NCBI RefSeq assembly: GCF_900166585.1
Contig: NZ_FVZC01000009.1
Span: forward strand, 806,001-870,000
DNA length: 64,000 nt
Direction of reading: 5' to 3'
From: Mesobacillus jeotgali
GTDB taxonomy: Bacteria; Bacillota; Bacilli; Bacillales; Cytobacillaceae
Within the stretch, counting starts at the first letter, position 1. Each line of letters starts with the position of its first letter. The translations under genes and the position numbers were made by a program. The notes under the pieces are model-generated. The model ran no database searches and was not told the origin of the DNA. It was given only the letters and a program-made list of their open reading frames with translations. Positions 9,578 to 44,540 of this stretch are shown here, one piece after another.

Positions 9578-9735
9578 TTAATGGACATTTCGAAGTGGGT
9601 CAGACGATGAAATGTCTAAGAACCTTGATTTAATGAACATTTTAAAGTGGAGCAGACCGATGAAATATCTAAAAGAACCTGTTTAAAAGACATCTCGATG
9701 TGCAGAAGAAGCTAAAATATGTAAATGCTCCTTTT
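9578..9735 (+). repeat. Decayed tandem repeat, about 3 units of 52-53 bp (array 0)
   Basis: Three degenerate units begin at about 9578, 9630 and 9683 (spacing 52 and 53 bp). Each reads roughly TTAATGGACATTT ... GATGAAATGTCTAAGAACC. The segment GTGGAGCAGACCGATGA of unit 2 aligns with the spacer GCTGGAGCAGGAAGAAGA of the 43.5-kb array, and the period is the same, so this looks like an old member of the same family. Confidence 0.65.
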
Positions 9736-9787
9736 ATTGGACCTTAAAAGAAGTCGTATTTAAGAGGTCCTGAGCAACTGCTCTTAC

Positions 9788-9820
9788 AAAAATAACGCCA
9801 GGAAAAGGCGTTATTTTTGT
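9788..9820 (-). terminator. Terminator of the small minus-strand gene
   Basis: AAAAATAACGCC pairs with GGCGTTATTTTT around a seven-base loop; it overlaps the stop codon of 9811-9960 and would work on both strands. Confidence 0.85.
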
Positions 9821-9960
9821 TTGTCCGCATTCTCCTTTTCAATTCCTTGTTGGAAAATTGACTCGAAAAATTCGTCGGCGGTTTCTAGTGTTCCGCCATG
9901 CAATTGTCCATCAGTGCCTCGCTTATTTTTATCTCCATCAACGGGCTTATGCCTAACCAT
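9811..9960 (-). CDS. Small hydrophilic protein of unknown function
   Basis: 49 codons from ATG 9960, preceded by an AGGGGGTG ribosome site at good spacing and ended inside a strong terminator. The peptide starts MVRHKPVDGDKNKRG, is polar throughout, and has an amphipathic helix candidate (ADEFFESIFQQGIEKE). Size, charge and genome position recall small acid-soluble spore proteins, but no SASP signature is seen. It shares its intergenic block with decayed repeat array 0. Confidence 0.6.
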   Translation of the reverse strand: MVRHKPVDGDKNKRGTDGQLHGGTLETADEFFESIFQQGIEKENADKQK

Positions 9961-10096
9961 GCAGTAAACACCCCCTGAAATTAGACTTTCTCAAATAAGA
10001 CAAAATTAACCGTCCGAGGTCCTTGTGAAACACTGGCAGGACATCGTGAGTCTAATAAAGAATATATATCCATAACAAAGATAAAGGGGATTATGC

Positions 10097-10552
10097 ATGT
10101 ATCAATATTTTAACGGCCTAGTCATTCGAGAAGGCACAGAAGGCGTCCCTGCTGCCCAGGTTGAGAAATTATTTCAAGATGCCGGTTGGGCCAGGAATAC
10201 TCCTGAATGGCAAAAGGAAAAGTATTCGCTAATATTTAAGAATTCAATCTGGGCCTTTACAGTATGGGATAAAACTAAGATGGTCGGCATGGTCAGAGTT
10301 ATATCCGATCAAATTATGGCTGCGAACATTATGGATTTGGCAGTCCGCTCAGAATATAGGGGAAGAGGCATCGGCCAAAAGCTTGTGCAATTATGTGTTC
10401 AGAAACTTCCTCATGGAGACTGGTTTGCCCATACTTCAGCCAACAACTTCAGCTTCTATGATAAATGCGGTTTTGAGGTAAAGGACCTTAGACAAAATGG
10501 GACGTGTGTATATTATGGATATATTCAGGCAAGAAAAGACGGGCATAGATAG
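10097..10552 (+). CDS. GNAT-family N-acetyltransferase
   Basis: 151 residues. Acetyl-CoA-binding motif A is RSEYRGRGIGQKLVQ at about residues 90-104 (R/Q-x-x-G-x-G/A), followed by AHTSANNFSFYDKCGFE. Substrate unknown. RBS AAAGGGGA precedes ATG 10097. The remnant of a DUF2750 gene begins 14 bases after its stop, suggesting the two were once co-transcribed. Confidence 0.85.
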   Translation: MYQYFNGLVIREGTEGVPAAQVEKLFQDAGWARNTPEWQKEKYSLIFKNSIWAFTVWDKTKMVGMVRVISDQIMAANIMDLAVRSEYRGRGIGQKLVQLCVQKLPHGDWFAHTSANNFSFYDKCGFEVKDLRQNGTCVYYGYIQARKDGHR

Positions 10553-10566
10553 GAGAATTAACGGTT

Positions 10567-10927
10567 ATGAATTCAAAAGAATTTGAAGCTGTTATCAGGC
10601 AGCCTGCAGAGGTTAGATATGAATACTTCATAAAAAAAGCAGCAGATTATGAGGAAGTTTGGGGTTTATATCTGGAAGGCTGGGCAACCGCGAAGGATGA
10701 TATGGAGAGGATTTTACTGCCATTGTTCCCTAATGAAAAAATTCGCAGGAGCCTTCGCTAAGAACGAATGGATAGCTTGCATTCCCAAAAGAATTGAGCT
10801 GGAGGATTTCCTTCAAAAATGGTTACCTGGAATGTAGTCTGAAGGAATCATGCCTTCGGTTTTTCCTGTGGACATAGATTCTGCATTGGTTGAAGTCGAT
10901 GATTTACATAAGGATTTACTGGCTTAA
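10567..10927 (+). pseudogene. DUF2750 protein gene, broken by a frameshift and a TAG stop
   Basis: The first 60 codons read as a DUF2750 protein (NSKEFEAVIRQPAEVRYEYF ... WGLYLEGWATAKDD). At 10736-10743 a run of six A replaces an expected five; the family sequence then continues in another frame (FAGAFAKNEWIACIPKRIE ... FLQKWLPGM), meets TAG, and resumes in that same frame (SEGIMPSVFPVDIDSALVE) to TAA at 10925-10927. Two independent lesions make sequencing error unlikely. DUF2750 has no known function. Confidence 0.8.
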
Positions 10928-10959
10928 CTTGAAAATTATTGATTCAATTGATATGTTAA

Positions 10960-10981
10960 ATTATACCCTTTATGGTATAAT
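10960..10981. promoter_or_regulatory. Perfect palindrome upstream of the MFS gene
   Basis: ATTATACC, six-base centre, GGTATAAT. The right arm contains TATAAT (10976-10981), about 37 bp before the MFS start codon, so the palindrome would cover its -10. It could be an operator for a regulator encoded elsewhere. Confidence 0.45.
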
Positions 10982-11017
10982 GAGTTTACCTATAAATAGA
11001 AAGAGAGAGCAAAAAGA

Positions 11018-12310
11018 ATGGCACAACAAAATGATGGAGCAGCGCTTGATAGTCAATCAGAATGGCTGCAAGATTATGTACAGTCACCTGAAAAGCAAAA
11101 GGCATTATATAAGAGAACCTTAATAATTGTTGTCTTATCGCAAATATTCGGGGGTGCGGGTCTTGCAGCGGGGATCACAGTAGGAGCTTTGTTGGCCAAA
11201 GAAATGCTTGGCACTGAAAGTGTGGCCGGACTTCCAACTGCCCTTTTTACTCTAGGGTCAGCAGGAGCGGCCCTTGTCGTCGGGAGGCTTTCCCAACGTT
11301 ATGGCAGGAGAGCTGGTCTGGCATCTGGATTTTTGACGGGTGGAGTTGGCGCCATTGGGGTCATAATTGCCGCAGTTACAAATAATATTTACCTCCTCTT
11401 TACAGCACTATTAATATATGGTGCTGGGAGTGCAACGAATTTGCAGGCTCGATACGCAGGTACTGATCTTGCCAGTTCAAAGCAACGGGCCACAGCAGTC
11501 AGCATCGCCATGGTTTCCACTACATTTGGTGCTGTCGCAGGACCGAATCTTGTAGACGCAATGGGAAGATTTGCACTTTCTGTAGGTGTACCTGCTTTAT
11601 CGGGACCTTTCATATTAGCCGCAGCAGCCTATATTGTAGCCGGCTTGATTCTGTTATTTTTCCTTCGTCCAGATCCGTTTGTTGTTGCAAGGGCAATTGC
11701 CGTGGCGGAACGGAACGCCAAAGTCACCAGCGCTGATTACATCGAAGCACCAGAAGCAACGAATAAACGGGGAATAGCTGTGTCAGCTTTGATCATGGTG
11801 TTGACCCAGATTGTGATGGTAGCGATCATGACTATGACGCCTGTGCATATGGGCAGTCACGGACATGGCTTGAGTGCAGTCGGGATGGTCATCGGCTTCC
11901 ATATCGGTGCCATGTACCTTCCGTCTTTATTAACAGGGGTGCTAGTGGATAAAATCGGCAGAGCGGCAATGGCTGTTGCTTCGGGAGTAACACTGCTGGC
12001 TTCCGGCGTATTGGCTGCTGTTGCACCGGGCGAATCAATGTTTTGGATTACATTAGCTCTCATACTCCTGGGGTTGGGCTGGAATTTTGGGCTGATCAGT
12101 GGAACAGCACTGCTTGTCGATGCAACCAATCCATCAAACCGTGCGAAAATGCAAGGCACCATCGATGTACTGGTTGCGTTGTCCGGTGCGGCAGGCGGGA
12201 TGTTATCAGGCTTGGTTGTCGCTAATTCAAGCTATGCCTTCTTGTCTTTAGGGGGCGGAGCATTATCCCTGTTATTAATCCCATTTGTGATATGGGCGAA
12301 CAGGAAATGA
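11018..12310 (+). CDS. MFS transporter
   Basis: 430 residues with twelve predicted hydrophobic segments and the MFS loop 2-3 motif (RLSQRYGRRAGLASG) plus its echo in the C-terminal half (GVLVDKIGRAAM). The central loop between helices 6 and 7 (PDPFVVARAIAVAERNAK) is hydrophilic. Substrate cannot be read from the sequence; efflux is plausible. RBS AAAGAGAGAG before ATG 11018. Preceded by a perfect palindrome and followed by a terminator, so it is a single-gene unit. Confidence 0.88.
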   Translation: MAQQNDGAALDSQSEWLQDYVQSPEKQKALYKRTLIIVVLSQIFGGAGLAAGITVGALLAKEMLGTESVAGLPTALFTLGSAGAALVVGRLSQRYGRRAGLASGFLTGGVGAIGVIIAAVTNNIYLLFTALLIYGAGSATNLQARYAGTDLASSKQRATAVSIAMVSTTFGAVAGPNLVDAMGRFALSVGVPALSGPFILAAAAYIVAGLILLFFLRPDPFVVARAIAVAERNAKVTSADYIEAPEATNKRGIAVSALIMVLTQIVMVAIMTMTPVHMGSHGHGLSAVGMVIGFHIGAMYLPSLLTGVLVDKIGRAAMAVASGVTLLASGVLAAVAPGESMFWITLALILLGLGWNFGLISGTALLVDATNPSNRAKMQGTIDVLVALSGAAGGMLSGLVVANSSYAFLSLGGGALSLLLIPFVIWANRK

Positions 12311-12311
12311 G

Positions 12312-12338
12312 GAGTCTGGGGTTCCAGGCTCTTTTTTT
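12312..12338 (+). terminator. Terminator after the MFS gene
   Basis: GAGTCTGG and CCAGGCTC around GGTT, then seven T residues. Confidence 0.9.
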
Positions 12339-12605
12339 ATGGCTTTTGTATAAAAGGAATTTATGAAATCTATGTTGAATTATTGTGGGATATAGTTATT
12401 TACAGCCAGGCGCTTGGAATCTCGGATATGAGCTTCGGTCTAGTTGGAAATCTCTACAAAATTTTACTTATTCTCTACGTAAGAACTATATTCTCAACAA
12501 ATTGATGCACAATCTCTACGTTTACCATATATCCGGAAAAACTTTACGGGAAAATCCTGCACATATTCGCATAGTAAATAAAAATTAATTGAAAGAGTGA
12601 TTGAG

Positions 12606-13247
12606 TTGAGGAAATTAATCCTGCTGAGTGATGTAAGCAATAACAATCCCGCTTTGGTTCAAAAAATCAGGAAAGTATTAACTCCCAAACCTTTTAAGCT
12701 TGCTTATGTTCCATCGAGAACAGATAAGCAAAGAAAGTACTTTGAAAAAGGTAAGGATGAGTTAGAAAGGCTTGGTGTAACGGATTTTTTATATTTTGAT
12801 GTAGATCAGGAATTTGATCAATTAAAGTTGGGGGATTTTAAAAAATGTGATGGTATTTTTCTTTCTGGCGGAAATACATACCTGTTTTTGAAGAACCTGC
12901 AGGAACGTAATATATTTAGTCTCATAAGGGAAATGGTTCGGGAAGGGAAACCATTAATTGGTGTAAGTGCTGGAAGCATTATTATGTCCAGCTCTATCAA
13001 AATCGCTGCCTTTCATGATGAAAATGAGGCAGGGCTGGAAAGTCTAGATGGCCTGGAGCTGGTGGATTTTGAATTCATGCCGCATTGGAACAGTTTGGAG
13101 AAGGAACAGGATAAGTTATTGCAATATTCTACGCTCCAGAACGAAAGCATTTATACCTGTAATGATGGGGATGGCATCGTCTTGATTGATGATGACATTG
13201 AATTTTATGGTGATATTCACGAGATACGAAAAGGAAAATTTCTATAA
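12606..13247 (+). CDS. Peptidase S51 (dipeptidase E / cyanophycinase-like)
   Basis: 213 residues in the S51 fold: GIFLSGGNTYLFLKNLQE and the nucleophile elbow GVSAGSIIMS (Ser-nucleophile), then FMPHWNS. Dipeptidase E cleaves Asp-X dipeptides; here the exact substrate is inferred only at family level. No ATG start is available: TTG 12606 is nine bases after GAAAGAG and begins with RKLILLSD, the usual first strand; GTG 12597 is the alternative. Ends in a terminator shared with the receiver gene. Confidence 0.8.
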   Translation: MRKLILLSDVSNNNPALVQKIRKVLTPKPFKLAYVPSRTDKQRKYFEKGKDELERLGVTDFLYFDVDQEFDQLKLGDFKKCDGIFLSGGNTYLFLKNLQERNIFSLIREMVREGKPLIGVSAGSIIMSSSIKIAAFHDENEAGLESLDGLELVDFEFMPHWNSLEKEQDKLLQYSTLQNESIYTCNDGDGIVLIDDDIEFYGDIHEIRKGKFL

Positions 13248-13281
13248 AAAAAGGCATTGTGTTCGGAACAATGCCTTTTCT
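13246..13281. terminator. Bidirectional terminator
   Basis: AAAAGGCATTGT pairs with ACAATGCCTTTT; T-rich on both sides, between converging genes. Confidence 0.9.
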
Positions 13282-13634
13282 TATATCAGTTCTTTTATTT
13301 TTGCAATGACATCCTTTGGGCTGAAAGGCTTTAAAATATACTCGCTGGCTCCTAATTCTTCCCCACGTTTAAGGTCCTGGGCCTCACCTTTAGCCGAAAG
13401 CATAATTACGGGTGTGGTTTTGATTTTCCTGATTTCCTCCAACACTGTAAAGCCGTCTTTTCCAGGCATTAAAATATCAAGAATGATGACATCGAAGGGT
13501 TCCTGTATTGCTTTCTCCAATGCTTCTACGCCATTGTTTGCTACCTCAACCTCAAAAGATTCTCTTTCTAAGTACATCTTTAACAACTGGCTTATTCTTT
13601 GTTCATCTTCTGCAACCAGTACACGCTTTCCCAT
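13281..13634 (-). CDS. Stand-alone response-regulator receiver domain
   Basis: 117 residues, CheY-like only, with no output domain. Acidic pocket Glu9-Asp10, phosphorylation site Asp53 (VIILDILMPGKDG), Ser in MLSAKG and Lys in YILKPFSP are all present, so phosphorylation is expected. Start set at ATG 13634 after CAGGGGG rather than the upstream ATG at 13664. No histidine kinase is nearby. Confidence 0.85.
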   Translation of the reverse strand: MGKRVLVAEDEQRISQLLKMYLERESFEVEVANNGVEALEKAIQEPFDVIILDILMPGKDGFTVLEEIRKIKTTPVIMLSAKGEAQDLKRGEELGASEYILKPFSPKDVIAKIKELI

Positions 13635-13783
13635 GTTTTCCCCCTGAAAAATGTTTCTTAACATAAGTATACACTATTGAGATGGTGTTTTCTAAAGTAG
13701 AAAAGAATTAAATTTCGATTAATTAAAATTGATTTCAAAAAATGAGTGTGCTAATATGTGTCCTATAATATTTTAATTCATAG

Positions 13784-13799
13784 TATACTTATAGGAATT
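13784..13799 (+). promoter_or_regulatory. Possible promoter/CymR site of the yrrT operon
   Basis: TATACT (13784-13789) followed by GGAATT (13794-13799) in an A/T-rich context. In B. subtilis the yrrT operon is repressed by CymR, whose sites include a GGAATT core; that is the only basis for this call. Confidence 0.35.
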
Positions 13800-13824
13800 A
13801 TAATAATTAAAAGCGGGTGAGAAA

Positions 13825-14472
13825 ATGGGAAGAGAATTTATCCCGTTGTTTGATGATTGGGCAGAATTTTATGATGAAACAGTTTCAGGTCATGATGTTG
13901 AGTATAAAGAAGTGTTCGAGGATTATGATAAAATATTACATGCAGTAGCATCTAAGTCAACAGGGACAGTACTGGAGTTTGGAGTCGGAACAGGAAATCT
14001 GACTGAAAAGCTGATTTCTTTAGGAAGAGTGGTCTACGGTGTAGAACCTTCCAAAGTGATGAGGGAGAAAACCAGAGCCAGATTTTTGGATATGCACTTG
14101 TATGATGGGGATTTTATTCATTTCCCTGAATTGCCCCAAAAAGTGGATACGATCGTAAGTACCTATGCTTTTCACCATTTAACAGATGATGAAAAAGATT
14201 CCGCCATCAAGTTATATAGTGAGATATTAGGGAATGATGGAAAGATTGTATTTGCTGATACCGCCTTTTTGGATGAAAAGGATCGTGAGGGGCGACACCG
14301 AATCGTAAAAGAGCAAGGCTTCCTAAATCTCCTTGAAGACCTTCAAAGAGAGTACTATACCACTCTTGAAGTACTGGAACATCTTTTTCGGAAAAACGGT
14401 TTTGAGGTTCGTTTCGAAAAGATGAACCCCTATGTTTGGCTGATGGAGGCTGTTAAAGTAACCAAAAATTAA
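13825..14472 (+). CDS. yrrT: YrrT, class I SAM-dependent methyltransferase
   Basis: 215 residues. SAM-binding motif I is VLEFGVGTGNLT at about residues 48-59, motif II region is YGVEPSKVM, and VSTYAFHHLTDDEK is the post-motif typical of YrrT. Substrate unknown; the gene leads the methionine-to-cysteine operon in Bacillus, so a role in SAM/SAH turnover is inferred. AAAGCGGGTGAG precedes ATG. Next gene 24 bases downstream. Confidence 0.88.
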   Translation: MGREFIPLFDDWAEFYDETVSGHDVEYKEVFEDYDKILHAVASKSTGTVLEFGVGTGNLTEKLISLGRVVYGVEPSKVMREKTRARFLDMHLYDGDFIHFPELPQKVDTIVSTYAFHHLTDDEKDSAIKLYSEILGNDGKIVFADTAFLDEKDREGRHRIVKEQGFLNLLEDLQREYYTTLEVLEHLFRKNGFEVRFEKMNPYVWLMEAVKVTKN

Positions 14473-14496
14473 TCAAAGTATTGGAGAGTTGCAGTA

Positions 14497-15195
14497 ATGA
14501 GAGTTGGAATTATCGGTGCAATGGATGAAGAAGTAGATTTGCTTCGCAGTAAAATGGCAGACAGGGAAGATATCACTCTTGCAGGAAGTGAATTTTACAA
14601 TGGCAAGGTTGATGGCCTGGAAGTAGTATTGCTTAAGTCTGGAATCGGTAAAGTGAATGCCGCTATGGGGACAGCGCTGTTGATTGAAAAGTTCAAGCCT
14701 GATGTCATCATCAATACAGGTTCTGCAGGCGGTTTCCATGAAGAACTGAATGTGGGTGATGTAGTTATTTCGACAGAGGTAAGGCATCATGATGTTGATG
14801 TTACAATCTTTGGCTATGAATATGGGCAGGTTCCTAGAATGCCTGCATATTTTTCACCTGATGCCAACCTTGTAAATGTAGCAGAAAAGAGTGCTGGAAA
14901 AATTAACGACATTCAAGTCGTAAAGGGTCTGATTGCTTCTGGGGACTCCTTCATGAACGACCCAGAGAGAGTAGAATTTATCAGAAGCAAACTGCCTGAT
15001 TTGTATGCTGCTGAAATGGAAGCAGCTGCAATAGCCCAGGTTGCTTATCAATTTGAAGTGCCATTCGTGATTATCAGGTCATTATCAGACATTGCCGGGA
15101 AGGATTCGAATATTTCATTTGACCAATTCCTAGAAACTGCTGCTAAAAATTCCGCAGAACTAATTTTACTAATGTTAGAGGAGCTGAAAAAATAA
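14497..15195 (+). CDS. mtnN: 5'-methylthioadenosine/S-adenosylhomocysteine nucleosidase
   Basis: 232 residues of the purine nucleoside phosphorylase fold: [15 protein letters not shown] with the catalytic acid, [33 protein letters not shown] and SLSDIAGKD with the conserved Asp. It removes adenine from SAH and MTA; from SAH it yields S-ribosylhomocysteine, the LuxS substrate. Its stop overlaps the luxS ATG by one base, so the two are translationally coupled. Confidence 0.95.
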
Positions 15196-15662
15196 TGGTA
15201 AAGAAAATGAATGTCGAGAGTTTCAATCTTGATCATACAAAAGTTGCAGCACCATATGTAAGGCTTGCTGGTACGACCCAGGGAGCCAGTGGAGATGTTA
15301 TCCATAAGTATGATATACGCTTCTGCCAGCCAAACAAGGAGCATATGGAAATGCCCGGTCTCCACTCACTTGAGCATTTAATGGCTGAAAATATCCGCAA
15401 CCACCATGACACGGTTGTGGATATAAGCCCAATGGGATGTCAAACAGGATTTTATCTTTCAGTCATCAATCATGATGATTATGACAATATCCTGGATGTG
15501 CTGGAAAAAACATTGAAAGATGTACTTGAAGCCGATGAGGTGCCAGCTTGCAATGAAATCCAGTGCGGCTGGGCAGCCAGCCACAGTTTAGAGGGAGCAA
15601 AGGAAATTGCAGCAAAAATGCTGGAAAAGAAAGATGAGTGGCGCCAGGTTTTTGCTGAATAA
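15195..15662 (+). CDS. luxS: S-ribosylhomocysteine lyase (AI-2 synthase)
   Basis: 155 residues. Metal ligands His57 and His61 in HSLEH, Cys124 in EIQCGW; catalytic Glu60 and Cys82 (PMGCQTG). LuxS splits S-ribosylhomocysteine into homocysteine and DPD, the precursor of autoinducer 2. In B. subtilis luxS lies apart from yrrT-mtnN-mccA-mccB; here it is inside the operon, directly after the enzyme that makes its substrate and before the enzymes that use its product. Confidence 0.97.
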
Positions 15663-15677
15663 GGAGAGTAATAGGCA

Positions 15678-16601
15678 ATGACGGTTTACCGCAGTATCCA
15701 TGAACTTATTGGAAATACACCGATGATTGAACTAACCAGATTCCATCTTCCACAAGATGTCCGGCTGTTCGCAAAGTTAGAATACTTAAATCCAGGCGGC
15801 AGTATAAAGGACCGGCTTGGCTTAGAATTACTGGATGAAGCATTCCGCTCAGGCAAATTAGCTGAAAACGGCACATTGATTGAACCGACTGCTGGAAATA
15901 CTGGCATAGGAGTTGCACTTGCCGCGATTAATAAAGGCATTGATGTAATCTTTGTTGTACCAGAAAAATTCAGCCTTGAAAAGCAGTCAATCATGAAGGC
16001 GCTGGGAGCAAAAATCATCCATACTCCGACTTCGGAAGGAATGGAGGGAGCCATCCGTAAGACAGAACAATTGCTTATGGATATCCCAAATTCCTATTCC
16101 CCGTCACAATTCTCAAATCCAGCCAACCCTGATACCTACTATAAAACACTAGGGCCAGAGATTTGGGATGACCTGGATGGAGAGATTGATATTTTTGTAG
16201 CTGGTGCTGGTACTGGCGGAACTTTTATGGGTACTGCAAGGTTTTTAAAAGAAAAAAATCCAATGGTAAAGACCGTCATTGTTGAACCAGAAGGATCGAT
16301 TCTTAATGGCGGCGAATCCGGCCCCCATAAAACAGAAGGAATTGGAATGGAATTCCTTCCGCATTACATGGACACTTCTTACTTTGATGGAATCCATACC
16401 GTTTCAGACCAAAATGCATTTGACCGCGTGAAAGAGCTCGCGGCTAAAGAGGGAATACTTGCTGCGAGTTCTTCTGGCGCAGCTCTTCATTCAGCTTTGC
16501 AGGAAGCACAAAAAGCCCCTCCAGGCACAAAAATCGTAACGATCTTCCCTGATGGAAGCGAGCGTTATTTAAGCAAAAAAATATACGAGGGGGGAATTTA
16601 A
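15678..16601 (+). CDS. mccA: MccA, O-acetylserine-dependent cystathionine beta-synthase
   Basis: 307 residues, fold type II PLP enzyme. PLP lysine Lys44 in NPGGSIKDRLG; phosphate-binding loop GTGGTFMGTA; substrate loop EPTAGNTGIG (asparagine loop). In B. subtilis MccA (YrhA) condenses homocysteine with O-acetylserine to cystathionine. Distinguished from CysK by its operon position between luxS and mccB. RBS AAGGAGAG; starts 15 bases after luxS. Confidence 0.92.
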   Translation: MTVYRSIHELIGNTPMIELTRFHLPQDVRLFAKLEYLNPGGSIKDRLGLELLDEAFRSGKLAENGTLIEPTAGNTGIGVALAAINKGIDVIFVVPEKFSLEKQSIMKALGAKIIHTPTSEGMEGAIRKTEQLLMDIPNSYSPSQFSNPANPDTYYKTLGPEIWDDLDGEIDIFVAGAGTGGTFMGTARFLKEKNPMVKTVIVEPEGSILNGGESGPHKTEGIGMEFLPHYMDTSYFDGIHTVSDQNAFDRVKELAAKEGILAASSSGAALHSALQEAQKAPPGTKIVTIFPDGSERYLSKKIYEGGI

Positions 16602-17732
<1,131 letters not shown>

Positions 17733-17904: not shown

Positions 17905-20024
<2,120 letters not shown>

Positions 20025-20076
20025 AATATATTATTTAATAGTCATTATAACACCAATTTATTATTCTTCAATAGAA

Positions 20077-28486: not shown

Positions 28487-28770
28487 CTGCTTTATTTGGT
28501 TTAGATGACGAACAGAAAAGAGCGCGAATAAGGGAAAAGTGCCCGTCATAGCCTTGATGACGGACAGGAAGGACGAGAATAAGAGAAAAAGTGTCCGTCA
28601 TAGACTTGATGACGGACAGAAAGGACGAGAATAAGAGAAAAAGTGTCCGTCATAGTCTTGATGACGGACAGGAAGGACGAGAATAAGAGGAAAAGTGTCC
28701 GTCATAGCCTTGATGACGGACAGGAAGGACGAAAATAAGAGAAAAAGTGTCCATCTAAGGTTGAAGCTGG
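28487..28770 (+). repeat. Tandem hairpin repeat array 1, 52-bp units
   Basis: Units begin at 28539, 28591, 28643, 28695 and 28747 (partial), exact 52-bp spacing, with a decayed unit before them at about 28487. Each unit has GTGTCCGTCATAG..., closing with GATGACGGAC, a 9-bp stem (GTCCGTCAT/ATGACGGAC) with a seven-base loop, then about 27 bp of purine-rich spacer ending in AAAAA. Internal units are almost identical, edge units are decayed. Confidence 0.95.
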
Positions 28771-32956: not shown

Positions 32957-33470
32957 AGGTTCGGATAGAAAGGCTATAACAGTCATGCATAAGTCTGTAG
33001 CCAGAAAAGAGTCCGATATAATGGCCATTTCGGACAAACCGAAGGATGGAACAGTATAAAAGTGACCGAAAGAAAGGCTCTATCGGACAATCAGAAGGAG
33101 AGAACAGTCGAAAAGTGTCCGAAAGAAAGGCTCTATCGGACAATCAGAAGGAGAGAACAGTATAAAAGTGACCGAAAGAAAGGCTCTATCGGACAATCAG
33201 AAGGAGAGAACAGTATAAAAGTGACCGAAAGAAAGGCTCTATCGGACAATCAGAAGGAGAGAACAGCCGAAAAGTGTCCGATAGAAAGGCTCTATCGGAC
33301 AATCAGAAGGAGAGAACAGTCGATAAGTGTCCGAAAGAAAGGCTCTATCGGACAATCAGAAGGAGAGAACAGTCGAAAAGTGTCCGAAAGAAAGGCTCTA
33401 TTGGACAAACAGAAGGTTGGACATACAGAAGGATAGAACACGGAAAACCGTCTGATAAAAAGTGGGCCAC
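32957..33470 (+). repeat. Tandem hairpin repeat array 2, 53-bp units
   Basis: Clean units start at 33062, 33115, 33168, 33221, 33274, 33327 and 33380, exactly 53 bp apart; degenerate units precede them at about 32957 and 33009. Unit: GTGTCCGAAAGAAAGGCTCT, then ATCGGACAATCAGAAGGAGA, then GAACAGTCGAAAA. The stem GTCCGATAGA/TCTATCGGAC is perfect only in the unit at 33274; others carry A/T or GACC changes. A terminator lies 120 bp beyond. Confidence 0.95.
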
Positions 33471-36084: not shown

Positions 36085-36086
36085 GA

Positions 36087-36542: not shown

Positions 36543-36708
36543 CTCTCCTTTAGATTTAGGTTCATAGCCTATAAAAAGTATATGCAGCAATTGACAAAGT
36601 TGGGAATGCGAACTGGGTGCACCACTTACAGAGGAGGAAATTCTATATAAGAGGCAGTGTCTTGTTTAAAAACAAATAAAATCTAGAAATTAATTAGGAG
36701 AGATCCAA

Positions 36709-37203: not shown

Positions 37204-37376
37204 AAATTTTAATAACAAATTCTAATTTAGTCGTAATGCAATCATTTCATGCCCGATCATAACCCAAAAACTCTTACTTATCATACAGTAGCTTAATTGG
37301 AAAAAAATGAATCCTTTTCTCTTGCTAAAGCGTAATGTTATAAAGGATTTTGGCAACTGTTGGAGGAGGATGACTT

Positions 37377-37739: not shown

Positions 37740-37747
37740 ATTTAATG

Positions 37748-37781
37748 AAAAGACCAAATCACTTGTTGGATTTGGTCTTTT
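37748..37781. terminator. Bidirectional terminator
   Basis: AAAAGACCAAATC pairs with GATTTGGTCTTTT; lies between converging genes. Confidence 0.92.
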
Positions 37782-37790
37782 CCATTTGTT

Positions 37791-38288: not shown

Positions 38289-38407
38289 AAAAACCACCTC
38301 ATCATTAAAATATAACAACTGGCCAAATTTATGTATTCCAATACTTTTCATTAAAAAAGCCGCGGAAGGGAATAATGTTTATAAAAAGGTAAAAAGAAGG
38401 TGAGACC

Positions 38408-38734
38408 TTGCCTCGAAAAGCTGCAGATAACCCGGATGTCAAAGGAAATGAGGAACAGGAAAATTTAACACAGCCAGACAATGGAAAAGAAGAAATTGAG
38501 GCGTTAAATCATATGTTGGCGGCGGTGCTTAACTATATATCTGATGATGAAGTAGAAGTAATTGACATCGAATACTTGCTTAACAACACAGAGGGTCTAC
38601 GGGACTGGTGGGACCAATACCGTGAAAGAAACAGGAAAAAGATTGAAGAAGAAATATCAAAGGCACTTGGCGGTCTTTCCATTGAAGAGTTAGAGGATCT
38701 TCGGGAGAAAATCAAGGGGAAAGACAGAGAGTGA
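38408..38734 (+). CDS. Acidic hypothetical protein
   Basis: 108 residues, TTG start after AAGGTGAG. Strongly acidic; it contains EALNHMLAAVLNYISDDEVE, then IEYLLNNTEGLRDWWDQYRE, and ends in a charged helix (SIEELEDLREKIKGKDRE). No known domain recognised. The helical, leucine-patterned ends might serve protein-protein contacts. Confidence 0.6.
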   Translation: MPRKAADNPDVKGNEEQENLTQPDNGKEEIEALNHMLAAVLNYISDDEVEVIDIEYLLNNTEGLRDWWDQYRERNRKKIEEEISKALGGLSIEELEDLREKIKGKDRE

Positions 38735-39079
38735 AGGGATTAATTGCTTTCCATTTGTTCTGGACTTATTGGAAGTGTCAAGTTCAACTTGTAGTGTAAA
38801 AGGGTCTTGAATGCTTTTTGTCTGATTGCATGGAAGGTAACAACTTTTAGATTTATGCTCTTAAATATAGGTGGTATTTTCACTATAACTGGTGTGAGAT
38901 CTGGTATTCTGCGACATCTGATTAAACCCTCTTTGTTTTTATGAAATTCAGGGTTAGATAAAAACGCATGGGAGCGCTCTTGATAACAGAGAGTGCTTTT
39001 TAAAATTGTTCTGGAATATTTAAACAAATTAGAAGGTGATATTCATTATATAGAGAATGTTAATACAGAGGTGAGGGTA
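38735..39079. other. Gene-poor stretch
   Basis: No gene with a ribosome site. Near the right end, AGCGCTCT ... AGAGAGTGCT followed by T residues (38972-39002) resembles a terminator on the + strand. Confidence 0.5.
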
Positions 39080-39499
39080 GTGACAAATCGTTTGATCAGG
39101 GTAGGAACAATTTATCTGCCAGTAAAGGACCCACTGAGTTCTTCAGAATGGTATATAGAGTCACTTGGAGCCAGATTGAATTATTTGGATCAAGACAAGG
39201 CCATTCTTGATTTGGCTGACATCAGCCTGTTTTTGGTGAAATCCTCAGGTCAGAGTGCAAATTTTAAGGACATAAACGGGGCGGAAAGGTTCACGGTCAC
39301 ATATGAAGTTGATGGTTTAGAGGCTCTCCAATTGATGCATGCTGATTTTATAGAACAGGGCATGAAAGTCGGTGAGATTGAAAACCGGGGCCACGCCGGA
39401 CGTAATTTTGTATTTTATGATCCTGATGGGAATAAATTCGACGTATGGAGTGAACTGAGCAGCAAGTACAAACAGAGGATGGGGATGGAGGAACAATGA
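39080..39499 (+). CDS. VOC superfamily protein
   Basis: 139 residues from GTG 39080, preceded by AGAGGTG. Signature ends: VGTIYLPVKDPLSSSEWYIE and FVFYDPDGNKFDVWSEL, which matches single-module VOC proteins with the DPDGN loop and the terminal metal-ligand Glu. Substrate unknown. Its stop overlaps the next start by four bases (ATGA). Confidence 0.82.
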   Translation: MTNRLIRVGTIYLPVKDPLSSSEWYIESLGARLNYLDQDKAILDLADISLFLVKSSGQSANFKDINGAERFTVTYEVDGLEALQLMHADFIEQGMKVGEIENRGHAGRNFVFYDPDGNKFDVWSELSSKYKQRMGMEEQ

Positions 39500-40056
39500 A
39501 ATTTGTTTTAATATTTGGTCCGCAGGCTGTAGGGAAAATGACGGTAGGGCATGAACTTGAAAAAATAACTGGTCTAAAACTTTTTCATAACCATATGACA
39601 ATAGACCTTGTGAACCCTTTCTTTGATTACGGTACGAAGGAAGGGAAGAGTCTGGTTGGCCTATTTAGAGAAGAATTATTTAAGGCAATGGCTAAAAGTG
39701 ATCAATACGGAATGATTTTTACTTATGTCTGGGCATTCGATCTGCAGGAAGACTGGGATTACGTTGAAAAAGTTTGCGACTTGTTCGAATCAGAAGGTGG
39801 CACGGTGTACTTTGTTGAACTCGAAGCTAACTTAGATGAGCGGCTGGTAAGAAATAGAAGTGCAAATCGGCTTAAGCACAAGCCTTCTAAGCGAAACTTG
39901 GAGTGGTCAGATAAGGATTTGGTGGAGACCATGGACAAGTATCGACTAAATTCTTATGAAGGTGAAATTCAAAGAGCCAACTATATCAGGATTAATAACA
40001 CTGATTTAACTGCAGCAGAGGTTGCTAACCATGTAAGAGACCATTTTGATTTGTGA
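39496..40056 (+). CDS. P-loop kinase-like protein
   Basis: 186 residues. Walker A-like GPQAVGKMT at the very N-terminus (residues 8-16), hydrophobic beta-strand start KFVLIFG, then HNHMTIDLVNPFF, and a lid-like arginine cluster (DERLVRNRSANR). This is a shikimate-/uridine-kinase-like AAA_33 fold protein. Acceptor unknown. Translationally coupled to the VOC gene. Confidence 0.78.
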   Translation: MKFVLIFGPQAVGKMTVGHELEKITGLKLFHNHMTIDLVNPFFDYGTKEGKSLVGLFREELFKAMAKSDQYGMIFTYVWAFDLQEDWDYVEKVCDLFESEGGTVYFVELEANLDERLVRNRSANRLKHKPSKRNLEWSDKDLVETMDKYRLNSYEGEIQRANYIRINNTDLTAAEVANHVRDHFDL

Positions 40057-40069
40057 AAGGGGGGCAATA

Positions 40070-40656
40070 ATGATGGGATCTATGAAACTACTAGAACAGG
40101 AGATACAAGAAAAGGAGAAAGAAAACTTTTCCGAGTAAAACAGGAGCTTGCACAATTGCGTAAGCGGCACCCCTCTTTTATAGTGACCAATTACGAACTG
40201 ACCGACACAGAAGGAAGCCAGGTTCTTTTAAGGGAGCTATTTGGCGATAAAAATGAACTGATTGTTATACATAATATGGGGAAATCCTGTTTCTACTGTG
40301 CACTATGGGCTGACGGGTTTAGTGGATTTAAAGCCCACCTTGAGAACAGGGCGGCATTTGTTTTGACAAGTCCTGATGATTACAAAACATTATCGGATTT
40401 TTCCAGGGAACGAGGATGGGCTTTTAAAAGCGCTTCGTCAATGGGAACAACGTTTAAAGAAGATCTCGGTTTTAAAAACAATACGAGTTTCAGGCCTGGG
40501 GTTTCAATACTCTTGAAAGAAGAGGATGGAACCATTAAGCATTACACGAAAGCATCTTTTGGACCTGGTGATCAATACTGCAGTATTTGGTCTCTTTTTG
40601 AATTATTGCCGGATGGAAACGGAAACTGGGGGCTTAAACATGATTATGAACAGTAA
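40070..40656 (+). pseudogene. DUF899 (thioredoxin-like) gene with an N-terminal frameshift
   Basis: A good ribosome site (AAAGGGGGG) precedes ATG 40070, but that frame (MMGSMKLLEQEIQEKEKE) stops at TAA 40136. The rest continues in a second frame from about 40130: VKQELAQLRKRHPSF, then HNMGKSCFYCALWADGFSG and DQYCSIWSLFELLPDG, the DUF899 pattern with the thiol pair Cys-x-x-Cys. A one-base change near the A-rich stretch at 40110-40130 joins them. A shorter product from TTG 40156 is possible but has no ribosome site. Confidence 0.65.
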
Positions 40657-41407
40657 AAAGGTGTTATTTTGCGATATTCTTGGTCAGAAAAGTGAGATTG
40701 TTAAACTTCCGGAACAAGGCTGTACATCTGAAGTGTGCAAGATAGTCTCAGAAAATGGACAATTCATCCTGAAAAGTGCCACTAAGGAAAAATATCGAGA
40801 ATGGCTGCGGACTGAGGCCGAGGTGTTAAAGGCTTTATCTCTTCACCATACCATTCCTGTCCCCAAATTTTATGGTTTCTTAGAAAATGAGGATGCAAGC
40901 CATTTGTTGATGTCCTATGAGGATGGAATTACATTGACTGCTGCGTTAAAAGCCGCGGAAACAATGGAGGAAAAACAAACGCTAGTCCAGAGTTTTGGAC
41001 AGTTCCTTAGCACTCTTCACGCACAAGAACCTGTCTTCAAAACAGAAGCCGACTGGCTCGAAACTCAGTTGATTCGGGCACGGCTATATGCTGAGACAGG
41101 TCAGGCGGATGGCAGTTTAGCATTATTGGAACAGTTGGAAGAAGATAAACCTCAGAAGGTGAAACAAACAATGATTCATGGAGATTGTACAACCGACAAC
41201 GTGCTGGCAGTCAATGGACAGGTAAGATTGTTTATTGATGTAGCAGGAATGACTGTGGGTGACCCTCGTTATGATGAAGCACTGGCCATTCGGAAGTTCA
41301 GGGATACCCCTGAATTGCTTGCTTCTTTTTACGATGGCTATACTCGTTATCGAGTATCTGATCAAGAATACTGTTACTTTGAAGAAGGTTTATATGAATT
41401 TTTTTAG
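40640..41407 (+). CDS. Aminoglycoside phosphotransferase (APH)-family kinase
   Basis: 255 residues of the protein-kinase-like APH fold: lysine-bearing FILKSATKEKYREWLRTE, catalytic loop MIHGDCTTDNVL (HGDxxxxN) and metal-binding IDVAGMTVGDPRYDEAL. Related proteins phosphorylate aminoglycosides, macrolides or small metabolites; substrate cannot be told. ATG 40640 lies seven bases after GGGGG and overlaps the DUF899 gene by 17 bases. Confidence 0.82.
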   Translation: MIMNSKKVLFCDILGQKSEIVKLPEQGCTSEVCKIVSENGQFILKSATKEKYREWLRTEAEVLKALSLHHTIPVPKFYGFLENEDASHLLMSYEDGITLTAALKAAETMEEKQTLVQSFGQFLSTLHAQEPVFKTEADWLETQLIRARLYAETGQADGSLALLEQLEEDKPQKVKQTMIHGDCTTDNVLAVNGQVRLFIDVAGMTVGDPRYDEALAIRKFRDTPELLASFYDGYTRYRVSDQEYCYFEEGLYEFF

Positions 41408-41418
41408 GAGTGAAGAAA

Positions 41419-41847
41419 ATGTGCGAGGTTGTAAGCAGGGAATTTAAAGTGATTGTAATGAAACATAAAGGAAGATTTGAAGATTATCCGCAGCTGGTAC
41501 CACAGAGAGCGCAGCAATTTGCAAAGCGGATGCCTGACTTTTCCGGGACTGAAGTGACAGTTTACGAACCTAAAGAGAATATGAGCCATACGGAAGGAAC
41601 ATTCTATGTCGGAATACTAGTGAAGGATAACCCAGAGTCCTTGCCGGAAGAAATGGAATTTCTAGACATTCAGCATTCCTATGGAGTAATCAGAGGGAAA
41701 GTGCACGAGATGGGTGCATTATATTCGAAACTTGATAAATGGATTGATGAAAAAGGTTACTCCAGGGAAAATTACATAATTGAAACCTATCATCCTGTTG
41801 AAAATGATATTGAAGAGGTAGAAATATATATACCTATCAGTAGTTAA
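41419..41847 (+). CDS. GyrI-like small-molecule-binding domain protein
   Basis: 142 residues, stand-alone GyrI/AraC effector-binding fold (SHS2-like module pair): VVSREFKVIVMKHKGRFED at the start, YVGILVKDNPESLPEEMEF in the middle, and ENYIIETYHPVENDIEEVEI ending with IYIPI. No DNA-binding part. ATG 41419 after AGGAG; the GTG at 41410 overlaps the ribosome site. Confidence 0.75.
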   Translation: MCEVVSREFKVIVMKHKGRFEDYPQLVPQRAQQFAKRMPDFSGTEVTVYEPKENMSHTEGTFYVGILVKDNPESLPEEMEFLDIQHSYGVIRGKVHEMGALYSKLDKWIDEKGYSRENYIIETYHPVENDIEEVEIYIPISS

Positions 41848-41897
41848 TATGATAGAATATTGAAGATTTAACCTTATCTAGGTAATGGAGGGTTTTT

Positions 41898-42635
41898 ATG
41901 GAGTTTAGAGGTGCCTCGGCTTATGAGGAACGGGAGTTTTTTGAGAATTATATGAAGCGCAGAGCACGGCCTGAAAGTCCAAACAATGTCATCGAAAAGC
42001 CGATATTACTGGAGTTAATCGGGGATGTGAATGGCAAACAGATACTCGATCTTGGATGTGGAGGTGCAGAAATTGGCGCTGAGCTTCTACGGCAAGGGGC
42101 AGCTGGATATCTCGGTTTGGAAGGGTCGGAAAAAATGGCCAGAGTTGCAGCAGAAAATCTGAAAGGTACTGCTGGGCAGGTTTTGCACTCTTCAATGGAG
42201 GAGTGGGAACCGCATCCAAATCAATATAGTTTAGTTCTTTCTCGTTTTGCCCTGCATTATCTAGCAGATTTGGGAAGTGTTTTTGCAAAGGTTATGAACT
42301 CGCTGCTGCCAGGCGGGAGGTTTGTTTTCAGCGTGCAGCATCCAGTGCTCACCTCTTCCGCGAAAAGTGCAGAACAAAGCGGCAGGAGAACCGATTGGAT
42401 CGTGGATGATTATTTTAATCAGGGAGAACGAGTCGAACCGTGGATCGGGAAAAAAGTGATTAAATATCACCGGACTGTCGAAGAGTACTTCAAACTCCTG
42501 TTAGAAGCAGGTTTCGTGGTTGAGGACCTGAGAGAGGGGAAACCTAGAGCCGAGAAATTTTCCAGCGAGGAAGAGTATGAGCGGAGGACAAGAATCCCGC
42601 TGGTTTTGATGTTCTCTTGCAGGAAGCTGGGGTGA
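41898..42635 (+). CDS. Class I SAM-dependent methyltransferase
   Basis: 245 residues. SAM motif I ILDLGCGGAEIGAE, motif II YLGLEGSEKM, and LVLSRFALHYLAD. C-terminal region with YHRTVEEYFKLLLEAGF is typical of YrrT/UbiE-like enzymes. RBS ATGGAGGG. Stop TGA overlaps the ATG of the broken GNAT gene (TGATG). Confidence 0.87.
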   Translation: MEFRGASAYEEREFFENYMKRRARPESPNNVIEKPILLELIGDVNGKQILDLGCGGAEIGAELLRQGAAGYLGLEGSEKMARVAAENLKGTAGQVLHSSMEEWEPHPNQYSLVLSRFALHYLADLGSVFAKVMNSLLPGGRFVFSVQHPVLTSSAKSAEQSGRRTDWIVDDYFNQGERVEPWIGKKVIKYHRTVEEYFKLLLEAGFVVEDLREGKPRAEKFSSEEEYERRTRIPLVLMFSCRKLG

Positions 42636-43126
42636 TGGACCTGGAAATTCGTTTAGCAAAGAAAGAGGAGATCAAGAATATACTGTCCGTTCTTAATGCA
42701 GCTTCACTTGCTTTACTAGAAAAAGGGATTAATTAATGGCAGTATCCTTGGGATGAAGAACAGCTTGTGGACCAGGTGGGATTATTGTATGCCTCATTAA
42801 TTGATGGGAAGATAATTGGGAGTTTTGGAATCAAAAAGGTGGCAGAATTACATGTTGCGGAGTCTGGGAACTATCTCTATCAAATAGCCATACAACCTGA
42901 GTATCAGGGCAGAGGTTACGGTGCGCTGCTTACATCCTGGGCATGTAAATACTCCCGGGGAATGGGAGAGGATTTGTATCTAAATTGCTGGGCAGGAAAT
43001 GAAAAATTAAAGAACTTTTACAGCGAAAATGGCTTTGAATATGTTGGCGACTTTCCCGAAGAGGACTATTACATAAGCATTTTTAAATGTTCCGCGTCAG
43101 GTGTTTATTCTGGCCGGGACGTATAA
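42635..43126 (+). pseudogene. GNAT acetyltransferase gene with an internal TAA
   Basis: The frame from ATG 42635 reads MDLEIRLAKKEEIKNIL ... LLEKGIN, then TAA (42734-42736, codon 34), and goes on in the same frame with WQYPWDEEQLVDQVG through motif A (IQPEYQGRGYGALLTSWA) to 43126. In related proteins this position reads N-Q-W, so a CAA to TAA change explains the stop. The rest of the gene is intact; loss looks recent. Suppression cannot be excluded. Confidence 0.82.
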
Positions 43127-43271
43127 TTTGGTACACTCTAACTAAGCTGCATTATTATAGAAAATACGGTAAAAAGTTTACAAAATAGCCGATTTTGCTT
43201 GATTTCATCTTTACAATACTGTGTTAAAGTATAGATGTAAGGGAACTCATGATGAATAAGGAGTGTTGGCG

Positions 43272-43331
43272 ATGGTTTACAAAGTCATGATCAATTTCTT
43301 ATTAGTATGTGCCCACTTCTATCTGCTTTAA
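43272..43331 (+). CDS. Possible 19-residue hydrophobic peptide
   Basis: ATG 43272 is preceded by AAGGAG at 9-base spacing and encodes a mostly hydrophobic peptide (MVYKVMINFLLVCAHFYLL). A shorter frame (43250-43291) with its own TAAGGGA site overlaps its start. Comparable small hydrophobic peptides include leader peptides and type I toxins; no evidence separates these options. Confidence 0.3.
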   Translation: MVYKVMINFLLVCAHFYLL

Positions 43332-43334
43332 CAA

Positions 43335-43460
43335 AAGTTAAGAAAGTCTTAACAAATCACCGCATTGAACTTTATTTTTCTCTTTTAAAATAAATACTAG
43401 GCAGGATAGCAAGTGTGGCTATCAAGGCAATCAGCGAAGGTGGGGCTGGTTGCTTTTTTT
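43335..43460 (+). ncRNA. Candidate structured RNA ending in a terminator
   Basis: Three hairpins in a row: GTTAAGA/TCTTAAC (43336-43352, three-base loop), GATAGC/GGCTATC (43405-43423), and GCAATCAGC/GCTGGTTGC (43427-43453) followed by eight T residues. No adjacent gene needs this terminator except the broken GNAT gene 300 bp upstream. The promoter could not be located with confidence. Confidence 0.4.
43425..43460 (+). terminator. Rho-independent terminator
   Basis: GCAATCAGC pairs with GCTGGTTGC (one wobble) around a nine-base loop and is followed by TTTTTTTT. Confidence 0.88.
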
Positions 43461-43492
43461 TGTTGATTTCCGATTGATATTAATGTGTAAGG

Positions 43493-44540
43493 ATTTCCTC
43501 TAAGAATCTCGTTTAGGACAAACAAAAATAGAAACCTATTAAAAGTGTCCGATAGAAGGCTCTAACGGACAAACAGACGTGGGAGTTGGAGAAAAGTGTC
43601 CGATAGAAGGGCTGTATCGGACAAACAGAAGCTGTAGCAAGAAGAAAAGTGTCCGATAGAAATGCTCTATCGGACAAACAGTCGAGGGAGCGGGAGAAAA
43701 GTGTCCGATAGAAGGGCTGTATCGGACGAACAGTCGAGGGAGCGGGAGAAAAGTGTCCGATAGAAGGGCTCTATCGGACAAACAGACGTGGGAGCAGGAG
43801 GAAAAGTGTCTGATAGAAGGGCTGTATTGGACAAACAGAAGCTGTAGCAAGAAGAAAAGTGTCCGATAGAAATGCTCTATCGGACAAACAGGCGTGGGAT
43901 CAGGAGAAAAGTGTCCGATAGAAATGCTCTATCGGACAAACAGTCGAGGGAGTTGGAGAAAAGTGTCCGATAGAAATGCTCTATCGGACAAACAGTCGAG
44001 GGAGTTGGAGAAAAGTGTCCGATAGAAGGGCCCTATCGGACAATCAGTCGAGGGAGCGGGAGAAAAGTGTCCGATAGAAGGGCTCTATCGGACAAACAGA
44101 CGCTGGAGCAGAAAGAAGATGTCCGATAGAAAGGCTCTATCGGACAAAACAGACGCTGGAGCAGGAGAAAAATGTCCGATAGAAGGGCCCTATCGGACAA
44201 TCAGTCGAGGGAGTTGGAGAAAAGTGTCCGATAGAAGGGCTCTATTGGACGAACAGAAGCTGTAGCAAGAAGAAAAGTGTCCGATAGAAGGGCTGTATCG
44301 GACAAACAGACGCTGGAGCAGAAAGAAGATGTCCGATAGAAGGGCTCTATCGGACAAACAGACGCTGGAGCAGGAAGAAGATGTCCGATAGAAAGGCTCT
44401 ATCGGACAAAACAGAAGCTGGAGCAGGAGAAAAATGTCCGATAGATAGGCTTTATCGGACAAAACAGAAGCTGTTGCAAGAAGAAAAGTGTCCAATAGAA
44501 AGTTACAGAGGACAAACGTAACTTGGAAACTAGAAAAAGG
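43493..44540 (+). repeat. Tandem hairpin repeat array 3, 19 clear units of 51-54 bp
   Basis: Unit starts are 43545, 43596, 43649, 43701, 43753, 43806, 43859, 43911, 43963, 44015, 44067, 44119, 44172, 44224, 44277, 44329, 44381, 44434 and 44488, with decayed units at both ends (about 43493 and after 44488). Unit core: GTGTCCGATAGAAGGGCTCT followed by ATCGGACAAACAG, giving a 10-bp stem GTCCGATAGA/TCTATCGGAC and a five-base loop. At least four spacer types recur in mixed order (GTGGGAGTTGGAG, AAGCTGTAGCAAGAAG, TCGAGGGAGCGGGAG, ACGCTGGAGCAGAAAGAAG). Confidence 0.97.

What the first reader, a model, noticed from the sequence alone, without database searches (positions are those of the whole stretch)
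9578..44540. Four arrays of one 52/53-bp tandem hairpin repeat family with pairing-preserving differences
Arrays at about 9.58, 28.5, 33.0 and 43.5 kb share period (52-53 bp), orientation (+), layout (hairpin of about 25 nt then about 27-nt purine-rich spacer ending in AAAA) and position in intergenic DNA. Stems differ between arrays, yet pairing is kept: GTCCGTCAT/ATGACGGAC in one, GTCCGATAGA/TCTATCGGAC in another. Both arms changing together argues for selection on structure, in RNA or in cruciform DNA. Units inside an array are nearly identical while edge units are decayed, as in concerted evolution by unequal exchange or slippage. I know of no described family with these traits. The role is unknown: transcript stability, protein binding, or a neutral expandable repeat are all possible.
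Basis: partly seen in the sequence, partly recalled or inferred. Interest (0 to 1): 0.8.

Follow-up and report, generated by a model that had tools for sequence, protein, structure and literature searches.

The report
Replication-oriented 52-bp palindrome arrays in Bacillaceae
Many soil bacilli carry old tandem arrays of a 52-bp DNA unit, each unit holding an inverted-repeat site of fixed geometry, and in the one genus tested in depth the arrays nearly always point the way the chromosome is copied, which suggests docking sites for an unknown DNA-binding protein rather than an RNA element.

Summary
Three arrays (28.5, 33.0, 43.5 kb) are one family; the 9.58 kb array is a decayed sister type. 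The genome holds at least 17 array loci, and a two-unit pattern occurs in 47 of 299 sampled genomes of the order (23 of 116 genera).

Some stem pairs covary, others do not; A.A mismatches are common; G.T and A.C mismatches are about equal (32 vs 41), so there is no RNA wobble signature.

What is rigid is duplex geometry: TGTCC-N17-GGACA (753 cases, against 9 and 6 one base off) and a 25-bp spacer, giving a 52-bp period, about five helical turns.

In six complete congeners the purine-rich strand is the leading strand in 88 of 92 arrays, 35 of 38 loci, including 15 of 15 convergent loci. Arrays lie 3' of genes, often past a predicted terminator, and are inherited in place.

Best reading: phased duplex binding sites of an unidentified dimeric protein, with replication-linked orientation. 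Binding and function are inferred. In two genomes of other genera the polarity was mixed.

The parts
9578..9740 (+). Decayed sister-type (A-type) array, about three units, stem AAATGTCTA/TAGACATTT
   Evidence: Reading; units; DNA matches to four places in three own-genome loci
28504..28752 (+). Array of 52-bp units, stem TGTCCGTCAT/ATGACGGACA, between a methyltransferase gene and a NUDIX gene, both on +
   Evidence: TRF; units; Pfam; locus with the same stem in L063 and L094
33004..33432 (+). Array of 53-bp units between divergent NUDIX (-) and cation-efflux (+) genes; 6 of 8 units have a mid-stem A.A mismatch
   Evidence: TRF; units; Pfam
43541..44516 (+). Longest array in the window, 18-19 units, between convergent GNAT (+) and NERD (-) genes
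   Evidence: TRF; units; Pfam; array at the orthologous place in four of six congeners
43425..43462 (+). Predicted intrinsic terminator of the upstream gene, ending about 84 bp before the 43.5 kb array
   Evidence: Own terminator script; start of the hairpin read by eye

Best explanation
Each unit carries an inverted-repeat site, TGTCC-NNN-A-N9-T-NNN-GGACA (27 bp), that is read as duplex DNA by a symmetric, probably dimeric, protein not yet identified. Units are spaced 52 (51-53) bp, about five helical turns, so bound dimers would sit on one face of the DNA and could form a regular filament or loop. The arrays are vertically inherited chromosomal landmarks at gene 3' ends, kept homogeneous by unequal exchange or slippage. 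In Mesobacillus they are held in one orientation relative to the replication fork by their purine-rich spacer, most likely because the lagging-strand template matters for how they arise or work. SHOWN by sequence: layout, near-invariant distances, slower change of half-sites, inheritance in place, position 3' of genes, orientation in six Mesobacillus genomes. INFERRED: the protein, the filament or loop, and any role in chromosome organisation or in fork-transcription encounters.
For: TGTCC-N17-GGACA 753 times against 9 (N16) and 6 (N18); GGACA-N25-TGTCC 732 against 58 (N24) and 40 (N26), although the centre and the spacer vary in sequence. Unit step 52 in 407 of 491 and 51-53 in 484 of 491 over 100 arrays. 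A9 and T19 are the consensus in 100% and 99-100% of arrays in all three sets, also in the A-type arrays; part of this comes from the search patterns. Orthologous arrays: divergence 0.099 in half-sites, 0.211 in the loop, 0.253 in the spacer (90 of 141 pairs); about 0.15 when positions 1-5 and 23-27, which detection favours, are left out. Mismatches are strand-symmetric: G.T 32, A.C 41. Leading-strand orientation 88 of 92 arrays, 35 of 38 loci, convergent loci 15 of 15. Spacers 81% purine on the leading strand (median of 60 arrays) against 52% in other intergenic DNA of the same stretches.
Against: No binding protein is known or was found. Pair 8/20 covaries within genomes, which a single fixed half-site would not predict; base pairing or arm-to-arm template correction would. 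Orientation outside the genus is mixed: in G235 three arrays with the leading strand, one neutral, one against; in G261 two to three with, one near neutral, one against. Three of 38 loci in the genus are reversed. Against the local gene background (78% leading) the locus-level excess is only p 0.03, and the class of loci between two lagging-strand genes has 3 members. Units are not more curved than shuffled ones. Array-poor or array-free congeners exist: G001, G007, G009 and G011 gave no model match at 1e-5, G009 being only 66% complete, so any role is dispensable.
Confidence: 0.42

Rival explanations
1. Non-functional satellite DNA: palindromic units expand and contract by slippage on the lagging-strand template, which works in one orientation only; template switching between the arms corrects them to each other, and homogenisation keeps the period.
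For: Edge decay, very different unit numbers at orthologous loci, for example 7 and 19, 4 and 26, orientation with the fork, covariation at pair 8/20 within genomes. IS200-like copies in the same genomes, elements known to use the lagging-strand template (start of abstract of PMC6006769), are leading-oriented in 13 of 13 strong matches of G000, G008 and G010 (one search compared by eye), so such polarity needs no function.
Against: Near-invariant N17 and N25 distances while loop and spacer sequence turn over; slower change of half-sites; spacer purine content far above background; spread over 23 of 116 sampled genera with the same geometry.
Confidence: 0.27
2. RNA element: tandem hairpins in 3' ends of transcripts that stabilise or terminate RNA.
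For: Arrays lie 3' of genes with the purine strand as sense strand of the upstream gene in 68 of 81 cases; stems are mostly paired (1140 of 1344 cells Watson-Crick).
Against: G.T 32 vs A.C 41, no wobble excess on either strand; a predicted terminator lies between the upstream gene and the array in 39 of 68 cases and after the array in 10 of 68; at the 3 loci between two lagging-strand genes the arrays follow replication, not the genes; no Rfam family at gathering score at the arrays; loop length near-invariant.
Confidence: 0.08
3. DNA hairpin or cruciform recognised by shape.
For: Palindromes of several sequences share the 52-53 bp layout; equal G.T and A.C suits extrusion of both strands; pair 8/20 covaries within genomes.
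Against: Mid-stem A.A mismatches are kept uniformly through whole arrays; outer bases do not exchange for other pairs, although search bias shares in this; loop length near-invariant.
Confidence: 0.1
4. Product of REP-like or IS200/IS605-like mobilisation by a Y1 (HuH) transposase acting on the lagging-strand template.
For: Palindromes, many copies, fork orientation as for IS200-like copies in the same genomes.
Against: G005, G014 and G015 have arrays (57, 16 and 36 model matches) but no PF01797 match at 1e-8; arrays are inherited in place (109 arrays in 34 flanking-gene groups, 24 with more than one array).
Confidence: 0.05

Closest known systems
REP sequences and BIMEs (with TnpAREP/RAYT)
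   Same: Short intergenic palindromes in many copies, partly clustered, 3' of genes, claimed to bind proteins (start of abstract of PMC2817692; passages of PMC3733652; 3' position recalled)
   Different: One orientation and a fixed 52-bp step instead of alternating or loosely spaced copies; no GTAG or CGTC tag seen at the palindrome end in the consensus (read by eye); no link to a Y1 transposase
IS200/IS605 family elements
   Same: Orientation follows the replication fork (start of abstract of PMC6006769)
   Different: No transposase gene in the units, inherited in place, tandem units
MIRU/VNTR-type intergenic tandem repeats (for example 53-bp repeats of mycobacteria, PMC2453075 seen in a listing only)
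   Same: Unit size, direct orientation, copy-number change
   Different: Here a conserved inverted-repeat site of exact geometry spans many genera and follows the fork; no sequence comparison was made
Stem-loop families of PMC2267715 (Bant-1, Bhal-1) and bcr1 of the Bacillus cereus group
   Same: Intergenic stem-loop repeats of bacilli (passages)
   Different: Listed model sizes 72, 74 and 167 bp; the word 'tandem' does not occur in that paper's main text; sequences could not be compared
Operator arrays and chromosome sites such as parS or matS (recalled)
   Same: Inverted-repeat duplex sites, several per chromosome
   Different: Long tandem arrays at a fixed helical phase; binding protein unknown; sequence not compared with a motif library

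Membership tests
REP/BIME (RAYT-linked) | Genome encodes a REP-associated Y1 transposase | tested here: not met
   No PF01797 match at 1e-8 in G005, G014, G015, which hold arrays; a more diverged transposase is not excluded
REP/BIME (RAYT-linked) | GTAG or CGTC tetranucleotide at one end of the palindrome | tested here: not met
   Consensus flanks are AAAAG and AAC/AAA (read by eye; definition from passages of PMC3733652)
RNA structural element | Compensatory changes with wobble pairs tolerated on the RNA strand | tested here: not met
   G.T 32, A.C 41; covariation at some pairs only
RNA structural element | Match to a curated RNA family | tested here: not met
   Only a purine riboswitch and a tRNA-Sec in the window at gathering score
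IS200/IS605-like ssDNA element | Orientation follows the replication fork | tested here: met
   88 of 92 arrays, 35 of 38 loci in six congeners
IS200/IS605-like ssDNA element | Mobility: presence at non-orthologous sites in related genomes | tested here: not met
   24 of 34 flanking-gene groups hold more than one array, nearly always of different genomes; 10 groups hold one array
Protein-bound operator-like array | Conserved half-sites at fixed distance with free centre | tested here: met
Protein-bound operator-like array | A protein that binds the site | not testable with these tools
   No binding data; flanking NERD gene rejected as partner
Fork-polar chromosome landmark | Polarity holds across the genera that carry the element | tested here: inconclusive
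   G235 and G261 mixed, about five array places each
CRISPR array | Unique spacers between identical repeats | tested here: not met
   Spacers repeat with the units

The most novel reading that the evidence does not exclude
A previously undescribed class of bacterial chromosomal landmark: tandem duplex sites five helical turns apart, placed past terminators and between convergent genes, fork-oriented at least in Mesobacillus, and read by an unknown dimeric protein that organises the chromosome or manages fork-transcription encounters in Bacillaceae. The geometry is the conserved property, while the palindrome itself diversifies between loci and genera.
Probability: 0.25. Interest if true: 0.87.

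Novelty: new variant of a known kind. Interest (0 to 1): 0.72.

Why it matters
Intergenic palindromes of bacteria are usually treated as mobile debris or RNA hairpins. This family is present in 23 of 116 sampled genera of the order, is inherited in place, keeps its duplex distances to about one base pair and, in Mesobacillus, is aligned with the replication fork. If a protein reads it, this would add a new kind of nucleoid or replication landmark. If not, it is a clean natural record of how fork direction shapes satellite DNA in bacteria. Both readings can be tested directly.

Tried and rejected
RAYT/IS200 mobilisation: Y1 transposase matches do not track arrays; kept as a low rival. NERD gene beside the 43.5 kb array as partner: 5-13 NERD matches per genome in 13 genomes, also in G001, G007 and G011 which had no model match; in five of the seven genomes whose arrays I listed, one NERD gene lies within 2 kb of a listed array (by eye); rejected. 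Intrinsic curvature: median bend natural vs unit-shuffled 53.6 vs 46.5 (18 own arrays), 58.5 vs 50.5 (96), 48.0 vs 50.8 (78) (wedge values recalled); no clear excess, rejected. Passive leading-strand base skew as sole cause of purine spacers: background 52% vs 81%; rejected. Protein-coding repeat: a 124-aa frame crosses the 33.0 kb array on +, and two frames on - (103 and 146 aa) lie in the 43.5 kb array, but the period is not a multiple of 3 and no + frame of 80 aa crosses the 43.5 kb array; rejected. Plasmids and phages: no match for 316 bases of the 43.5 kb array. Papers: eight searches of an open-access library (0 papers; 27: 20 of 135 listed; 47: 15 of 22; 48: 12 of 342; 53: 2 of 2; 71: 10 of 10; 72: 12 of 123; 73: 10 of 29) showed no description of this family in the rows listed; passages of PMC2267715 and PMC3733652 were read, all others seen as listings or starts of abstracts. 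Unlisted rows and subscription papers were not seen.
Full report
WHAT IS THERE. TRF reports arrays at 28504-28752, 33004-33416 and 43541-44500. Units read GTGTCCGATAGAAGGGCTCTATCGGACA + AACAGACGCGGGAGCAGGAGAAAA or close variants. The 9.58 kb array has about three decayed units of another sequence. It matches four better-kept places in three loci of the same genome (L037, L041, L044) with the same 27-nt TGTC...GACA core and 52-bp step. A covariance model R1 from 20 units of three arrays gave 160 matches in the own genome at E 1, about 150 of them listed. Together these are 17 array loci (4 in the window, 13 elsewhere); divergent arrays may have been missed.

HOW WIDE. R1 matches 18 of 41 related genomes at 1e-5: the own genome, 16 of 20 congeners and one genome of another genus. 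Titles with at least one exact match include Mesobacillus, Neobacillus, Pseudoneobacillus, Cytobacillus, Caldibacillus, Virgibacillus, Lentibacillus, Ureibacillus, Sutcliffiella, Alkalihalobacillus, Peribacillus and Fictibacillus; a few rows, such as a Campbellbacteria and a Clostridia record, hold single matches that may be chance. By equal contig lengths (116,255 bases in G014 and in a Mesobacillus subterraneus record) I infer that the own genus is Mesobacillus. A two-unit pattern is present in 47 of 299 genomes of the order, 23 of 116 genera; the reversed control pattern matched once.

GEOMETRY. Over 100 distinct arrays of three or more units the step is 52 in 407 of 491 and 51-53 in 484 of 491 (48-57 allowed). 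In all loci held (overlaps not removed) TGTCC-N17-GGACA occurs 753 times against 9 and 6 for N16 and N18, and GGACA-N25-TGTCC 732 times against 58 and 40 for N24 and N26. Many loci were chosen by an N17 pattern or by R1, but one match per locus sufficed. 52.5 bp is five turns at 10.5 bp (my inference). TRF over 226 loci (1.77 Mb) gives 249 arrays of period 30-80, 226 of them at 50-53; the loci were chosen for having arrays. Some arrays at 52-53 have palindromes of other sequence (L082:2152, L097:4034, L240:10, L098:7702).

PAIRING. Of 192 array consensuses (18 own, 96 pattern loci, 78 of six congeners; some long arrays are split by the chaining, arrays under three units are dropped), pairs 5-11 give 1344 cells: 1140 Watson-Crick, 32 G.T, 41 A.C, 71 A.A, 15 T.T, 45 other. 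In pattern loci, where positions 6-7 and 21-22 were free, pair 6/22 is complementary in 68 of 96 against 28.7 +- 4.2 shuffled (0 of 5000), pair 7/21 in 56 of 96 against 51.1 +- 3.3 (463 of 5000); these shuffles ignore relatedness. In 91 distinct cores of 14 other genomes (those listed of 47 positive ones), shuffled within genomes: pair 8/20 82 vs 71.6 +- 2.4 (0 of 3000), 6/22 55 vs 52.0 (77 of 3000), 7/21 77 vs 75.8 (1119 of 3000), 10/18 73 vs 72.6 (1460 of 3000), 11/17 27 vs 33.8 (2986 of 3000). So covariation is real but uneven. Equal G.T and A.C argues against an RNA hairpin of either strand. A.A exceeds T.T (71 vs 15) on the purine-rich strand.

PLACE. Of 100 arrays, 81 had a gene called on both sides by a simple ORF caller. 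In purine-strand orientation the neighbours are ++34, +-34, -+5, --8: gene 3' ends, few divergent regions. Of the 68 with a co-directional upstream gene, 39 have a predicted intrinsic terminator between gene and array and 10 have one after the array. Orthologous arrays are counted separately here.

REPLICATION. dnaA and a single dif match were placed in six complete congeners and in the own genome. The R1 strand of 92 arrays (clusters of the listed matches; the lists are cut) is the leading strand in 88; nearby genes of 150 aa or more are 385 leading, 108 lagging. One vote per locus: 35 of 38 leading (p 7e-8 against 0.5, p 0.03 against 0.78). Convergent loci 15 of 15, divergent 2 of 2. Between co-directional leading-strand genes 15 arrays go with and 3 against the genes; between lagging-strand genes 0 with and 3 against (Fisher p 0.015). 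The last class is small; the convergent class is the best support, because gene direction is symmetric there. Spacers have a median of 81% purine on the leading strand (60 arrays) against 52% in 66,091 bases of other intergenic DNA of the same stretches; three arrays lie below 50%. The reversed loci are three, one of them with weak purine bias (0.42). The window lies before dif on its contig, so + is the leading strand there, as for all four arrays. Outside the genus: G235 has three array places with purine on the leading strand (0.6-0.72), one neutral (0.50), one against (0.32); G261 has two to three with (0.64-0.76), one at 0.44, one against (0.31). This does not support a general rule.

INHERITANCE. 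109 arrays in seven genomes fall into 34 flanking-gene groups, 24 with more than one array; a few groups merge neighbouring or paralogous loci. Unusual stems stay with their locus: GTCAT/ATGAC at 28.5 kb, in L063 and in L094. Between orthologous arrays (90 of 141 pairs usable, not independent) divergence is 0.099 in half-sites, 0.211 in the loop, 0.253 in the spacer; without positions 1-5 and 23-27, which detection favours, the printed values average about 0.15. Unit number varies widely. Array ends are decayed, the 3' end more.

READING. Free centre and spacer at near-fixed length, slower half-sites, tolerated mid-arm mismatches and strand-symmetric mismatch types point to duplex recognition by a symmetric protein, with neighbours on one face. 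The purine-rich spacer gives the array a direction, and in Mesobacillus this follows the fork. A neutral, fork-directed satellite is the main rival; IS200-like copies in the same genomes are leading-oriented in 13 of 13 strong matches, which shows that single-strand processes alone can give such polarity. The covariation at pair 8/20 fits template correction between arms or a hairpin stage better than a fixed operator.

KNOWN OR NOT. No Rfam family at gathering score at the arrays. Eight paper searches showed no description in the rows listed. Bant-1 and Bhal-1 of PMC2267715 could not be compared by sequence. I call it a new variant of the known kind 'intergenic palindromic repeat'.

Noticed in passing
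L240:10-352 (G019) and L098:7702-7996: Arrays of period 53 with a different palindrome (ACCCTTAT/ATAAGGGT) in the same layout; perhaps a third type.
   Followed up: no
L039:551-735 (own genome): Another tandem array with periods 40 and 52 and a unit holding TGACAG/CTGTCA pieces.
   Followed up: no
window 44596-45606 (-) and L144, L152, L160, L172, L177, L203, L221, L247, L269: A NERD-domain gene ends 55-109 bp from an array in ten loci, including Pseudoneobacillus and Neobacillus records; it looks like one old locus kept across genera.
   Followed up: partly
window 47595-47687 (+): tRNA-Sec gene at gathering score, a hint of selenoprotein use in this Mesobacillus.
   Followed up: no
window 19940-20041 (-): Purine riboswitch upstream of genes on the minus strand.
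   Followed up: no
G000, G008, G010: Thirteen strong Y1-transposase (IS200-like) matches all lie with the leading strand (one search compared by eye).
   Followed up: partly
L036 and L038 (own genome): The core loop is inverted relative to the purine-rich spacer, so core and spacer orientation can part.
   Followed up: partly
L077, L083, L094, L098, L103, L126, L128, L173: Records titled Chryseobacterium sp. ISL-80 carry Bacillaceae-type arrays and loci; the label looks wrong.
   Followed up: no
array ends, 116 arrays: Decay is polar: the last unit on the purine strand is more decayed than the first (3.86 vs 2.71 mismatches).
   Followed up: no
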